Shown here: in pieces, positions 3,710 through 8,092 of the stretch
How the letters are laid out: every line of letters starts with the position of its first letter
Position numbering within the stretch: position 1 is the first letter of the stretch
Source of the DNA: a virus
DNA length: 20,033 bases
Reading direction: 5' to 3' (one strand)
Virus record (IMG/VR): IMGVR_UViG_3300042465_005814
Coordinates: 1 to 20,033 of that record
Translations under genes and position numbers: made by a program
The notes under the pieces: generated by a model
What the model was told of the DNA's origin: nothing
Seen by the model: only the letters and a program-made list of their open reading frames with translations
Database searches by the model: none

Positions 3710-4240
3710 ATGTCAATATACACATACTTCCCAAAAATAAATTATAAAGTTGATGAATATGATTCGTTAAGAGCGATTGATATAACATCAGCTATAAAAA
3801 TAAAAGAATATCTGAAAAGCTACAGAGGTATATTGTATACTCCGTACATTGTAAAAAACGGTGATCGCCCTGACACTGTTTCAAATAAACTTTATGGTGA
3901 TCCAAACTATGATTGGATTCTTTTGATTGCAAACGACATGTATAGCGTGTACGATGACTGGCCAAGAAACTCTTTTGATTTAGATTCTTTCGTAATTGAA
4001 AAATATGGAAGTTTGGCCGCAGCCATGTCTACTGTAAAATATTACTACAATTCAAGTCTTGATATTATCGATGAAACAACATACAACAATCTTGCTTCAA
4101 ATGCAAGACGTTCAGAAACGCAGTATGAATATGAGTTGCGAGTAAATTCTAACAAAGCAAAAATAAAAGTTGTTAAGAGAAATTTGATTACTGCAATAAC
4201 GTCAGACTTAAATACAATTGCCAAAAGGCCAGTATTGTAA
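3710..4240 (+). CDS. 53: Baseplate wedge protein gp53
   Basis: A 176-aa protein of the Phage_gp53 family (T4 gp53, 196 aa). The signature is GDRPDTVSNKLYGDPNYDWI at residues 51-70, continuing LLIANDMYSVYDDWP, which lines up with the T4 PRPEELANAIYGNPQLYWVL...CNDNYDPYYGW region. This is a LysM-like fold that clips wedge components together; in T4, gp53 joins neighbouring wedges around the hub late in baseplate assembly. The N-terminus (YTYFPKINYKVDEYD) and a Lys-rich C-terminal helix are also typical. There is no strong Shine-Dalgarno, and its ATG is two bases after the gp48 stop, so translation probably depends on reinitiation. Its stop overlaps the next ATG (TAATG). Confidence 0.92.
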   Translation: MSIYTYFPKINYKVDEYDSLRAIDITSAIKIKEYLKSYRGILYTPYIVKNGDRPDTVSNKLYGDPNYDWILLIANDMYSVYDDWPRNSFDLDSFVIEKYGSLAAAMSTVKYYYNSSLDIIDETTYNNLASNARRSETQYEYELRVNSNKAKIKVVKRNLITAITSDLNTIAKRPVL

Positions 4241-6111
4241 TGGTAACTACAAACGCAAATTTTCCAGCATTCACTAGATTTTCTCCCAACTTATCGGAAA
4301 AATCAAGCATAGAAATAACTCAAGATCCAGTCACTCGTCCTGGAGTTGGGTCTGATGTTGATGTTAAAGAGATTTTTTTGATTACTGCTTATGGCGAAAG
4401 GGTAGATTTAAAGGGTGCATTTAGAGATATTGAAATTATTGAAGACATGTTCTCTGCGTCAATTGAAGGTGTTATTACTATTGACGATACTGGTGGTGGT
4501 TTAGAGAAATTTGCATTACGTGGTGGTGAAACTATTGGTGTTAAAATTGCAAAACCAAAAAGTAATGATGTAATCATTTGGAGAAAAGATTTAATCTTAC
4601 ACAAAATTAGTGAAAGCGTAGTAGATCAGACTACCTTGAGTAGCGTATATCAATTGCAGTTTGTGTCAAGAACTTTTGTTAATTCGACTAAAAAATGCTT
4701 ATTTAAAAGCTATAAGAACATGTCAATTGGCGATGCAGTATCGTCTATGTTTTCTGAGATTGGTGGTCAAAACGATTTAGTTTTAGAAGACCCTAAAATT
4801 ACTTTAGAAAAACCATTTATATCTACAGGACTCATGCCGCATAAAGCAATTGAAGCCATGACACACAGAGCATGTGCGAAAGGTGACTTTTATGTATTCT
4901 TTGAAAGATTGAATCCAGTATTTGCAACAAACACACAAACAGATGAGCCTTTTACTTCTTCATATTATTTTGGTAGTCTAAGCAAATTAATTGCAGATTC
5001 AGCACAATTTGGTGTGTATAACATTAAATTTTCTGAAAAATTACAAGCAAACCAAGAAGATTCAACAATAAGAACTCTCAAGTATGAAAGAAGAGAAAAT
5101 TTTAATCATTTGAACGCAATGTTGTTGGGACTTTACAATACAACGATTACGTCAATTGATCCAATATCAAGAACACATGCGATGAAAAAATTGTCGTATG
5201 CAAATGGTGAAAACGAAAGCACAGATTTTTACTCATTTAAAACTATAGATAATTTCAACATTTTTTCTAGGTATGATGATGTTGCTGGAGAAACTCCAGG
5301 AAGAAAATTAATTGCATCATCTTTAAATGATTCAGTAAACAGAGATGCATGGCTTGGAAATAATATCTATGGACATTTAAGCAAAAATCTATTTCAAATT
5401 GGTCTTGAAATTGAGGGTGGTAAAAATAATATTGGCGTTGGACACATAGTGCATTTTACGATTCCAAGTTCTTTTGAGAAGTTAGCCGATCCATTAAATC
5501 CAAATCCACCTAATGATAAAATTTATTCGGGTAAATATTTTGTTGTGTCAGTAACCCATAAAATTTCATTAGGCGAATACACAAAATCATTGGAATTAAG
5601 CAGAGCGTCTGTGCCTTTTGATTTTAATACTGGACTTGGATCAGATCAGATTGAATCGATTTTACCAAACAGAAGATACGCAGATAACACAGAGTCAACA
5701 TCAATAGTTGACAACTATTGGAGAAAAGGTGTGGTGCCTAAACAAGTAACTGCATCAACAACAACTGCCACATCAGCCAAAACTACGTTTACAGAGGGTG
5801 TTGAGTTTATTCAATATAATTATCCGCCTTTAGTGATAGCGGGGCAAACTGGAAATTATGTTTCGGGTGCAGATTTTGCAAGCATTCGTTTAACGGGAGT
5901 CAAACCGCTAAGTGCATATACTGTTCAGGCATTTAAAGATGGCGTTGAAGTTTCTGCAAATGAAGGACAAGGATGGCTGCCAAGAATTGATGGAGATGGA
6001 ACTGGTTGGATCGTTGCTATGGTAGGTAACGGACAATACAAATATGTGATAACGTTTGATAGCGGTGATGGCAATCAGAATCAATCAGTTGTAGACTTTA
6101 CTAAGTTGTAA
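4240..6111 (+). CDS. 27: Baseplate central hub protein, gp27-like, with extra C-terminal domain
   Basis: A 623-aa protein whose first 470 or so residues look like the hub protein of T4-like phages. They contain a beta domain (KEIFLITAYGERVDLKGAFRD, then IEDMFSASIEGVITIDDTGG) and the adaptor-like segment RTFVNSTKKCLFKSYKNMSI. A second beta half ends near YFVVSVTHKISLGEYTKSLE. gp27 forms the trimeric torus that holds the gp5 spike and connects to the tube. T4 gp27 is 391 aa, so this protein is over 200 residues longer. Residues 500-520 are a Thr/Ala/Ser linker, and about 520-623 form a separate beta domain with an Ig-like or carbohydrate-binding look (LSAYTVQAFKDGVEV, GTGWIVAMVGNGQYKYVITF). The kinase gene follows after an AAGGAAA site. 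The hub call is firm from pattern and synteny; the nature of the extra domain is inference. Confidence 0.82.
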   Translation: MVTTNANFPAFTRFSPNLSEKSSIEITQDPVTRPGVGSDVDVKEIFLITAYGERVDLKGAFRDIEIIEDMFSASIEGVITIDDTGGGLEKFALRGGETIGVKIAKPKSNDVIIWRKDLILHKISESVVDQTTLSSVYQLQFVSRTFVNSTKKCLFKSYKNMSIGDAVSSMFSEIGGQNDLVLEDPKITLEKPFISTGLMPHKAIEAMTHRACAKGDFYVFFERLNPVFATNTQTDEPFTSSYYFGSLSKLIADSAQFGVYNIKFSEKLQANQEDSTIRTLKYERRENFNHLNAMLLGLYNTTITSIDPISRTHAMKKLSYANGENESTDFYSFKTIDNFNIFSRYDDVAGETPGRKLIASSLNDSVNRDAWLGNNIYGHLSKNLFQIGLEIEGGKNNIGVGHIVHFTIPSSFEKLADPLNPNPPNDKIYSGKYFVVSVTHKISLGEYTKSLELSRASVPFDFNTGLGSDQIESILPNRRYADNTESTSIVDNYWRKGVVPKQVTASTTTATSAKTTFTEGVEFIQYNYPPLVIAGQTGNYVSGADFASIRLTGVKPLSAYTVQAFKDGVEVSANEGQGWLPRIDGDGTGWIVAMVGNGQYKYVITFDSGDGNQNQSVVDFTKL

Positions 6112-6119
6112 GGAAAAAA

Positions 6120-7070
6120 ATGAAACTTAAATTTTCAGAGTATGTAGATTTAAAAGACTACAAAGCAAGTCAACTTGTAGAAAAACAAATTCTCTATAAC
6201 AATGGCGCAAAGTATGGGCAGATTGTGTTCCTTGCTGGTGGCGCAGGCTCTGGCAAAGGATTTGCTGTTCAGCATTTCATGCAAGGCTCTGAGTTTAAAA
6301 TACGTGACGTTGATGAATTGAAGATTGCATTTCAAAAGTTAGATGCGCTTGGTAAATTCACGACACAAGACTTACTTGACAAGTATGGCGACAAGATTTC
6401 TCAAAAAGATAAAGAACTTATCCAAAAAGAATTGACAGACAAAAATTTAAAGATGGGTGAATTGAATCTTAAGACTCCAACTCATGTTTATATTCTACAC
6501 GTTCTCATTCGTGCAACTGACGTAAAGAACAAGACGTTAGACTTGATGCTTGCTGGCGCTGAAAAAGGGCAATTGCCAAATCTTATTTTTGATAGCACAT
6601 TCAAAGAAGTTTCAGACATGACAGATGTTTTGCCAAAACTGTTTGCCGCTGGATATGAACCAAAGAACATTCACGTATCTTGGGTGTTGACTAACTATCA
6701 GATTGCAATCAAGAATAACAAATCAAGAGCAAGAGTTGTGCCAGAAGATATTTTGCTTGCTACTCATGCGGGTGCGGCACAGACTGTATATAACTTAGTA
6801 ACAACAGCTATGCCGCCAACTGTTCAAGGCGGAATTTATGTCATTCTAAATAATCCAGAGAATACAATTTTCATTGTTGATCCGCAAACAAATAAAGCAT
6901 ACAAAGATAAGAAGGGCAATCCTGTTATTAAAGACTTCAAGTATTTGGTACTTAAAGAACCAGGAAAACCTGCTAAGAAAGAACTTGATGTAAAAAAACA
7001 ATTACTCACTTGGATCAAAGACAATGTTCCTCCAGGCGCAGTAGATACATCAGAATTAGACAAGCTATGA
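6120..7070 (+). CDS. P-loop kinase of zeta-toxin/AAA_33 type, in the hub operon
   Basis: A 316-aa soluble protein. A Walker A loop (GGAGSGKG, residues 40-47) follows a hydrophobic strand (IVFLA). A conserved-looking acidic site RDVDELK lies at 62-68, and a strand NLIFDST at 154-160 could be the Walker B or catalytic Asp strand. A basic segment NKSRARVVPEDI at about 200-211 resembles the Arg lid plus VP motif of zeta-toxin and related small-molecule kinases. The substrate cannot be told: nucleotide-sugar, nucleotide and RNA-repair kinases are all possible. The N-terminus MKLKFSEYVDLKDY has the form of short N-terminal peptides on T4-like head-packaged proteins. It lies between gp27 and gp5, where T4 has no such gene. 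The start has an AAGGAAAA site six bases upstream, and its stop overlaps the next gene (ATGA). Confidence 0.75.
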   Translation: MKLKFSEYVDLKDYKASQLVEKQILYNNGAKYGQIVFLAGGAGSGKGFAVQHFMQGSEFKIRDVDELKIAFQKLDALGKFTTQDLLDKYGDKISQKDKELIQKELTDKNLKMGELNLKTPTHVYILHVLIRATDVKNKTLDLMLAGAEKGQLPNLIFDSTFKEVSDMTDVLPKLFAAGYEPKNIHVSWVLTNYQIAIKNNKSRARVVPEDILLATHAGAAQTVYNLVTTAMPPTVQGGIYVILNNPENTIFIVDPQTNKAYKDKKGNPVIKDFKYLVLKEPGKPAKKELDVKKQLLTWIKDNVPPGAVDTSELDKL

Positions 7071-7222
7071 AAAAATTCAAACAGTTTATACAGGGCACTA
7101 CACTTTCGCAAGAAGAGTGGGAAGAAGAAGTTTTTGGTCCAGAATTAATTGAGACACCCGAACAAGTGGGTAGCGAAGACCAAGAAAAAGAAATTCAGCA
7201 TTTGAAGAACATGGGAAATTGA
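7067..7222 (+). CDS. 51-aa acidic protein of unknown function, coupled to kinase and gp5
   Basis: The ATG overlaps the kinase stop (ATGA), and its own stop overlaps the gp5 ATG (TGATG), so it is tightly locked into the operon. A longer frame opening at 7010 exists, but the overlapping ATG at 7067 is the natural start. The 51-aa product has 11 Glu and 1 Asp against 5 Lys and is probably largely helical or disordered. It begins MKKFKQFI, which resembles the N-terminal capsid-targeting peptide of T4 internal head proteins (MKTYQEFIAE in IPIII), but a clear gp21-type cleavage site is missing. It could be a partner or inhibitor of the kinase, a hub-assembly factor, or a packaged peptide. No family is recognised. 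Confidence 0.7.
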   Translation: MKKFKQFIQGTTLSQEEWEEEVFGPELIETPEQVGSEDQEKEIQHLKNMGN

Positions 7223-7848
7223 TGAGAAATTTTATTGGGCAAGATGGGTTTGTTTGGTGGATTGGAGTTGTTGAAGATATCAACGACCCGTTGACGCTGG
7301 GCAGATGCAAAGTGCGATGCTTTGGATATCATCCTGCAAAATCAACTAATCAAGTCCCAACTGAAGACTTACCATTTGCACTATCGATTCATCCTTTAAA
7401 TACTCCAAACCTTTATGCGACACCTAGGGTGGGCGAATGGGTTTTTGGTTTCTTCTTAGATGCGTTGACTGCACAAGAGCCTGCAATTTTAGGATATCTT
7501 CCTGCAATTCCACAAGCCGCCGCAGAGTATTTTGGTGCAACACCTAGTCTAACTAGAAATTTTGCAAGCGTATCTAATAAAAGTGATATTTTATGGGACG
7601 CAAACGGATCAAGCATCAAACTTGGATCTTCAGGTGGTATAAGTATTGTTGCAAACACTCATAGTATAATTACTTCAGACAAAACTCTTACCCTCAATGG
7701 AACAGAAAATTTAGTCCTTACTGATAGCAAAAATGTAACAACTCTTGACCAAATTCTCATTAGAATAAAAGCATTAGAGGACAGATTGAATAGTCCAACA
7801 ACTGAACTAGTACCCAATACATCAATCACAGTTATAACAAATATCTAA
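7222..7848 (+). CDS. 5: Short gp5-like baseplate spike protein with OB domain, no lysozyme
   Basis: A 208-aa protein. Residues 1-100 or so are the gp5 N-terminal OB domain: GFVWWIGVVEDINDPLTLGR, then VRCFGYHP, PTEDLPFALSIHP, GEWVFGFFLDAL and ILGYLPAIPQ. This domain seats the spike trimer on the gp27 hub. T4 gp5 (575 aa) continues with a lysozyme domain and a long beta-helix. Here the lysozyme is absent, and the rest is short: a Gly/Ser-rich beta segment (SSIKLGSSGGISIVANTHSI, LTLNGTENLVLTD) followed by a short coiled-coil-like helix (ILIRIKALEDRL). The phage must therefore breach the wall with another enzyme or by other means. The ATG overlaps the upstream stop; a TTG one codon earlier is possible but less likely. 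Confidence 0.88.
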   Translation: MRNFIGQDGFVWWIGVVEDINDPLTLGRCKVRCFGYHPAKSTNQVPTEDLPFALSIHPLNTPNLYATPRVGEWVFGFFLDALTAQEPAILGYLPAIPQAAAEYFGATPSLTRNFASVSNKSDILWDANGSSIKLGSSGGISIVANTHSIITSDKTLTLNGTENLVLTDSKNVTTLDQILIRIKALEDRLNSPTTELVPNTSITVITNI

Positions 7849-7915: not shown

Positions 7916-8092
7916 ATGACAAATCACGAAAACTTAGTAAATTTATTTGAATCATATCTTGCAGAGAGCGCAAAGTTTGACGAAAAAGGAAACAAAGCGG
8001 CTGGCACTAGAGCGAGAAAAGCATTAGCAGAGTTCACTAAAGCCGCAAAAGAACGAAGAAAAGAAATTCAAGACGCAAAAACGGCAGAATAA
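7916..8092 (+). CDS. 58-aa histone H1/Hc1-like basic protein
   Basis: ATG at 7916 with an AAGGA site eight bases upstream; the frame closes with TAA at 8090-8092. The product is a short, wholly helical-looking protein. Residues 20-50 read KFDEKGNKAAGTRARKALAE then FTKAAKERRKE. This matches the core of the Hc1 (bacterial histone H1-like) family, whose chlamydial members carry a GNKAAAQRVRT segment followed by a K/R-rich helix; similar short Hc1-like proteins occur in marine T4-like phages. A DNA-binding or packing role is likely by family. The N-terminal segment MTNHENLVNLFESYLAES contains LAE/S, which fits the T4 gp21 prohead-protease consensus. Removal of residues 1-17 would raise the net charge from about +2 to about +5. 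It sits between gp5 and gp25, outside any known baseplate role. Confidence 0.75.
   Translation: MTNHENLVNLFESYLAESAKFDEKGNKAAGTRARKALAEFTKAAKERRKEIQDAKTAE

What the first reader, a model, noticed from the sequence alone, without database searches (positions are those of the whole stretch)
6120..7222. Kinase plus acidic small protein inserted between the hub genes 27 and 5
A Walker A protein (GGAGSGKG at 40-47, NLIFDST at 154-160, NKSRARVVPED lid-like segment at about 200-210) and a 51-aa Glu-rich protein sit between the two genes whose products form the central hub and spike. All junctions are tight: ATGA into the small gene, TGATG into gp5. So the pair would be made together with the hub. 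Zeta-type kinases often work beside a small inhibitor, and here an acidic partner is coupled downstream. Options are a virion-delivered effector kinase, a metabolic or RNA-repair kinase, or a hub assembly factor. The sequence shows the motif and coupling; the pairing and function are inference.
Basis: partly seen in the sequence, partly recalled or inferred. Interest (0 to 1): 0.68.

Follow-up and report, generated by a model that had tools for sequence, protein, structure and literature searches.

The report
Head-targeted zeta-like kinase among hub genes
A gene pair wedged between two tail-tip genes of a lake/marine T4-like virus of bacteria encodes a zeta-type kinase and a small companion that both carry the address tag and cutting site by which such viruses load proteins into the head for injection, so the kinase is probably delivered into the cell with the viral DNA, which can be tested directly.

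Summary
The pair is real: a 316-aa P-loop kinase (6120-7070) and a 51-aa ORF (7067-7222), translationally coupled, lie between gp27-like and gp5-like genes. The kinase is PHROG 5268 (no known function) and scores above the Pfam Zeta_toxin cut-off; the model resembles zeta toxin, AvrRxo1 and polynucleotide kinases about equally. The hub position is fixed in one clade (and one distant relative) but not in the family: in Straboviridae the gene lies near Hoc, Inh or nucleotidase genes. What stays constant is the N-terminus: an MKxFxxF-type segment, a linker of variable length, then (L/I)xE directly before the kinase core, in every distinct homologue examined but one. T4 internal head proteins (capsid-targeting sequence plus gp21 cleavage site) have this layout. 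The small gene has it too. Its full form is 77 aa; the window's 51-aa form has lost the folded core, and some relatives lack the gene, so it is not a dedicated inhibitor. Best reading: a late-made, head-packaged, protease-trimmed kinase ejected with the DNA, comparable to T4 Alt. Virion location, cleavage and substrate are inferred, not shown. The hub-effector and toxin-antitoxin readings are not supported; 'virion-delivered kinase' is, via the head.

The parts
6120..7070 (+). PHROG 5268 zeta-like P-loop kinase, 316 aa
6120..6182 (+). Predicted capsid-targeting prosegment of the kinase, residues 1-21 (MKLKFSEYVDLKDYKASQLVE), ending in the predicted prohead-protease site LVE
   Evidence: all 79 distinct N-termini tabulated end in [LI]xE before the core; control; low-confidence segment, coil at 19-23, core starts after it
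6237..6260 (+). Walker A, GGAGSGKG, residues 40-47
6306..6314 (+). DVD, residues 63-65, probable catalytic Asp region (invariant)
6726..6734 (+). LID arginines R203 and R205 (invariant)
7067..7222 (+). 51-aa companion: keeps the prosegment (MKKFKQFI...ELIE, residues 1-29) but has lost the folded core that relatives carry in a 77-aa form
7145..7153 (+). LIE (residues 27-29), predicted cleavage site of the companion
4240..6111 (+). gp27-like hub protein (context)
7222..7848 (+). gp5-like hub OB-domain protein, short, no lysozyme domain matched (context)

Best explanation
The kinase and its companion are precursors of head-internal proteins, not hub parts. Each begins with a capsid-targeting segment that would bind the scaffolding core of the prohead; the prohead protease (gp21 type) would cut after (L/I)xE, leaving a mature kinase core (about residues 22-316) inside the head, to be ejected into the cell with the DNA, as for T4 IPI-III and Alt. 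The kinase is predicted to be active and, as a zeta-class enzyme, most likely phosphorylates a nucleotide-type small molecule of the host at time zero. Shown here: the sequence layout, its conservation, its likeness to T4 precursors, the prohead protease and scaffold in a complete relative, late-promoter-like elements in isolates. Inferred: packaging, cleavage, ejection. Guess: the substrate.
For: (1) All 79 distinct homologue N-termini tabulated have [LI]xE immediately before the conserved core, with 11 different middle residues and linkers of differing length; 5 of 5 MAG homologues also have it, one with a 10-residue leader MLTFSQYLQE, like T4 ipIII MKTYQEFIAE. (2) The companion, of unrelated fold, has the same layout: variable prosegment, [LI]xE with about ten different middle residues, conserved core. 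(3) Control: gp53, gp27, gp5, gp25 and gp6 alignments have no such triplet, gp48/54 one with 4 middle residues; in the diverse kinase and companion alignments it is the only one (7-9 middle residues). (4) T4 sites match: ipI ITE|A, ipII/III IAE|A, gp23 LTE|A, gp24 LRE|S; published: IPs and Alt carry an N-terminal CTS removed by gp21 and enter the host (PMC7411985, PMC5694885, PMC9958956). (5) Complete relative G001 (150 kb, 127-bp terminal repeat) encodes gp21 (phrog_207, 1e-75) and a scaffold protein starting MLKFKDFI; its major capsid protein has LSE|T aligned at the T4 gp23 site. (6) Isolate homologues begin MKSFKQFT, MKSFKDFT, MKKFSEFI, like T4 ipI MKTFKEFT. (7) 8 of 8 isolate homologues checked have TAAATA 24-36 nt upstream, against 1.2% of random windows and 14% of other ORF starts. 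(8) Catalytic motifs invariant.
Against: No virion proteomics was found that lists a homologue. The strict N-terminal pattern was refined after seeing the sequences; with a looser pattern 11 of 203 G001 starts match against about 5 expected. E21 could be conserved for folding reasons. Tenacibaculum PTm5 has VFE instead of [LI]xE. [quoted passage not shown] The TAAATA test counts related phages, and T4 ipI-III show no TATAAATA within 130 nt of their own starts.
Confidence: 0.74

Rival explanations
1. Unpackaged late metabolic or nucleic-acid-end kinase: an ordinary intracellular enzyme (polynucleotide, nucleotide or cofactor kinase) whose N-terminal segment only mediates folding or interactions.
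For: Bacterial polynucleotide kinase (Z 12.1) and T4 Pnk (Z 10.3) come close behind zeta toxin (Z 12.7) in the fold comparison; in Slopekvirus and Pseudotevenvirus the gene is followed on the same strand by a 5'-3' deoxyribonucleotidase gene and lies in a region with an RNA ligase.
Against: The N-terminal segment is variable, predicted with low confidence and separated from the core by an (L/I)xE site with free middle residue; a structurally unrelated neighbour shows the same layout.
Confidence: 0.16
2. Hub- or baseplate-associated kinase: a hub assembly factor or tail-tip effector made with gp27 and gp5.
For: Strictly fixed position between gp27 and gp5 in one large clade, and in a distant relative at 45% identity (L335); overlapping or near-overlapping junctions.
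Against: In Straboviridae and other homologues the gene is not near 27/5; six Hc1-bearing relatives keep 27 and 5 without the kinase; hub alleles diverge to saturation while the kinase stays about 90% identical in DNA, and the reverse.
Confidence: 0.06
3. Zeta toxin-antitoxin module with the acidic 51-aa protein as the inhibitor.
For: Zeta_toxin match above cut-off; coupled small acidic ORF downstream.
Against: Kinase genes without the small gene, and forms that have lost its core; core is beta-beta-beta-alpha, no good structural match; its core homologues in PA5oct-like phages lie apart from any annotated kinase of this family.
Confidence: 0.03

Closest known systems
T4 internal proteins IPI, IPII, IPIII and Alt (CTS-targeted, gp21-processed, ejected)
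   Same: MKxFxxF-type N-terminus (IPs), (L/I)xE before the mature part, prohead protease and scaffold genes in a complete relative; Alt is also an ejected enzyme that modifies host targets
   Different: Cargo is a zeta-class kinase; genes sit among hub genes in this clade; leader often longer (21-22 residues); packaging not demonstrated
Zeta toxins (PF06414; epsilon/zeta, PezT)
   Same: Profile match above curated cut-off, P-loop kinase fold (3q8x Z 12.7, 1gvn Z 12.5), invariant P-loop Lys, Asp and LID Arg
   Different: No epsilon-type antitoxin; N-terminal prosegment; phage-encoded; substrate unknown
AvrRxo1 (zeta-like NAD kinase, a type III effector; PMC5491322, PMC5087710)
   Same: Fold match as good as zeta toxin (Z 12.6 over 207 residues); an injected zeta-fold kinase
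   Different: 8% sequence identity over the aligned region; unrelated delivery route; NAD kinase activity untested here
PHROG 5268
   Same: Full-length member (E 1e-50)
   Different: PHROGs gives no function; the capsid-targeting reading is new here as far as the library searched shows

Membership tests
T4-type CTS internal (ejected) head protein | N-terminal capsid-targeting segment like that of IPI-III | tested here: met
   small protein MKKFKEFI vs T4 ipI MKTFKEFT; the kinase is a looser match (MKLKFSEYV)
T4-type CTS internal (ejected) head protein | (L/I)xE prohead-protease site between leader and mature domain | tested here: met
   exception PTm5
T4-type CTS internal (ejected) head protein | Genome encodes gp21-type protease and scaffold | tested here: met
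   in complete relative G001; not testable in the 20-kb window record itself
T4-type CTS internal (ejected) head protein | Present, processed, in the mature head and ejected | not testable with these tools
   needs virion proteomics
Zeta toxin (PF06414) | Profile score above gathering cut-off | tested here: met
   26.9 vs 22.3 bits; 25.9-35.4 bits in 6 other family members
Zeta toxin (PF06414) | P-loop kinase fold with catalytic residues conserved | tested here: met
Zeta toxin (PF06414) | Cognate antitoxin neighbour | tested here: not met
   companion absent or core-less in many kinase-bearing relatives
Zeta toxin (PF06414) | Phosphorylates UDP-GlcNAc-type sugar nucleotides | not testable with these tools
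   biochemistry needed
Hub (gp27/gp5) component | Constant linkage with 27 and 5 across the family | tested here: not met
   constant in one clade, not in Straboviridae
Polynucleotide kinase (Pnk) | Fold similarity | tested here: inconclusive
   Z 12.1 (4jt2) and 10.3 (1ly1); AAA_33 profile seen only below its cut-off, in some members

The most novel reading that the evidence does not exclude
A widespread class of phage-head cargo kinases of the zeta fold that is ejected with the DNA and phosphorylates a host metabolite or signalling nucleotide (for example NAD or a UDP-sugar) before any phage gene is expressed, blunting metabolism or an NAD/nucleotide-based defence.
Probability: 0.3. Interest if true: 0.82.

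Novelty: new variant of a known kind. Interest (0 to 1): 0.62.

Why it matters
It gives an uncharacterised phage protein family (PHROG 5268; matches in 206 isolate records) a location and timing hypothesis that one mass-spectrometry run on phage heads could confirm or kill. If right, zeta-fold kinases join ADP-ribosyltransferases and antirestriction proteins as enzymes that phages inject at time zero. The leader-plus-(L/I)xE signature is also a simple way to look for unrecognised head cargo in T4-like phages, including cyanophage families of unknown function (phrog_455, phrog_2496).

Tried and rejected
Toxin-antitoxin pairing and hub assembly factor: rejected as above. PADLOC and NCBIfam gave no convincing match; sequence search of the PDB gave nothing useful. 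Hc1 neighbour as a third leader-bearing cargo: its conserved E is preceded at P3 by L, V, I, S or Q, so the site is not clean and I do not claim it. Literature searches for virion proteomics of Slopekvirus or PTm5 found no statement on this protein; no paper was found linking zeta toxin with capsid targeting. Companion fold: best structural match only Z 3.4, so no fold family assigned. TATAAATA itself is absent upstream of the kinase in the window, where it is read within an operon. The gp27/gp5 divergence comparison used loci selected by kinase similarity, which biases it; loci selected by gp6 show the same direction.

Full report
OBSERVATION. The 316-aa protein is PHROG 5268 (1.4e-50) and scores 26.9 bits against Pfam Zeta_toxin, cut-off 22.3. 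It lies between a gp27-like protein and a gp5 OB-domain protein; gp53, gp25 and gp6 homologues are nearby. The window is a 20,033-base virus record. The nearest isolates by gp6 are Pelagibacter phage HTVC008M and Methylophilales phages at about 38-39%.

POSITION. In loci chosen by kinase similarity and in loci chosen by gp6 the gene order is 27-kinase-5. Of 46 gp6-chosen locus records with both 27 and 5, 30 have kinase and small gene, 5 a kinase without the small gene (one of them, L141, a different zeta-like kinase), and 11 neither. Some of these records overlap the same contigs. A very different phage contig binned in an archaeal MAG (L335, 45% identity) has the same order without the small gene. 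In Straboviridae (Klebsiella KP15, Cronobacter GAP161, RB43, Pectobacterium POP12, Aeromonas 65 and AS-zj, Vibrio EniLVp02, Cronobacter S13) the homologue lies elsewhere, near Hoc, Inh, nucleotidase or tRNA genes. Hub linkage is therefore a lineage feature.

THE SMALL GENE. Relatives carry a 77-aa form; 12 of 79 loci have none, with gp5 starting on the kinase stop, and the window plus 9 relatives have 48-53 aa forms that keep the N-terminus and lose the central core. The 77-aa protein is predicted as a low-confidence prosegment (1-28) and a beta-beta-beta-alpha core (29-76, pLDDT about 80-86). Core homologues at 71-75% identity occur in PA5oct-like Pseudomonas jumbo phages and in Stenotrophomonas phages, and the alignments begin within a few residues of the predicted cut. 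It does not behave like an obligate inhibitor.

THE N-TERMINI. The kinase N-terminus is predicted as an isolated low-confidence helix (5-18), a coil holding L19-V20-E21, then the core. All 79 distinct N-termini tabulated have [LI]xE right before the core, with 11 different residues in the middle. Five MAG-derived homologues have it too; the exception is Tenacibaculum PTm5 with VFE. Linker length varies; the shortest leader is MLTFSQYLQE. The companion shows the same pattern in all full-length forms. As a control, alignments of gp53, gp27, gp5, gp25 and gp6 have no such triplet and gp48/54 has one with four middle residues. T4 ipI begins MKTFKEFT and has ITE|A; ipII and ipIII begin MKTYQEFIAE|A; gp23 has LTE|A and gp24 LRE|S. 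Published work states that IPs and Alt carry an N-terminal capsid-targeting propeptide removed by gp21 and enter the host cell (PMC7411985; also PMC5694885, PMC9958956, PMC3012670).

GENOME CONTEXT. A 150,107-bp relative, G001, has a 127-bp terminal repeat and is taken as complete. It encodes gp21 (phrog_207, 1.3e-75) and a scaffold protein beginning MLKFKDFI; its major capsid protein has LSE|T at the position aligned to the T4 gp23 cleavage site. With the strict leader pattern five G001 starts match (kinase, companion, scaffold protein, its 168-aa neighbour, a phrog_455 protein) against 0.09 expected, but the pattern was tuned after the fact; the loose pattern gives 11 against about 5. In T4 the strict-type matches are ipI-III and gp61.1. 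Eight of eight isolate homologues have TAAATA, the core of T4-type late promoters (own knowledge), 24-36 nt upstream, against 1.2% of random windows and 14% of other ORF starts, which suits late expression.

EVOLUTION. Against the window, kinase and Hc1 keep pS near 0.36 where gp53, gp27 and gp25 are near saturation (median 0.64-0.73), and in L020, L033 and L064 the hub genes are closer than the kinase. Hub alleles and kinase recombine independently, which speaks against an obligate hub partnership. Kinase pN/pS is about 0.1.

FUNCTION. The P-loop, DVD, D158/T160, R203/R205 and H216 are invariant. Fold matches: epsilon/zeta toxin Z 12.7, AvrRxo1 Z 12.6, Clostridium Pnk Z 12.1, T4 Pnk Z 10.3, so the substrate cannot be read from fold. 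I favour a nucleotide-type small-molecule substrate on the Pfam match; a nucleic-acid 5' end is the main alternative.

VERDICT. Sequence evidence is strong that both proteins are built as capsid-targeted, protease-trimmed precursors. Packaging, cleavage and ejection are inferred. Identity of the substrate and benefit to the phage are open.

Noticed in passing
window 7916-8092: 58-aa Hc1 (chlamydial histone H1-like) protein, Pfam 8e-17, conserved in the whole clade including kinase-less relatives; kept at about 90% DNA identity while hub genes diverge.
   Followed up: partly
window 7222-7848: The gp5-like protein (208 aa) matches only the N-terminal OB part of gp5 families; no lysozyme domain was matched.
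   Followed up: no
L178 2909-4750; L337 2708-4813: Apparent intein inserted in the kinase P-loop in Tenacibaculum phage PTm5, and again in a Campylobacterales MAG contig, there with an intervening endonuclease-like ORF.
   Followed up: partly
L141 5541-6254: A different zeta-like kinase (phrog_12810, 24% identity) occupies the same gp27/gp5 slot in a more distant phage.
   Followed up: partly
L336 3797-8830: Homologue (431 aa) in a run of genes whose products start with leader-like sequences: phrog_2496 MKKFRSFLTE|K and phrog_455 MALDFKNYIFE|A, both families found in cyanophages; possible further head cargo.
   Followed up: partly
L254 4965-5159: Companion core homologue in jumbo phage PA5oct lies between genes annotated as MS-detected structural proteins.
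   Followed up: no
window 4240-6111 and relatives: gp27 C-terminus beyond about residue 463-500 is not matched in most relatives; hub alleles (gp53, gp27, gp25) appear to be exchanged between phages.
   Followed up: partly
L173 18966-19130 (T4 gene 61.1): T4 gp61.1 starts MKTFKEFIKED, like the internal proteins; could be an unrecognised head protein.
   Followed up: no
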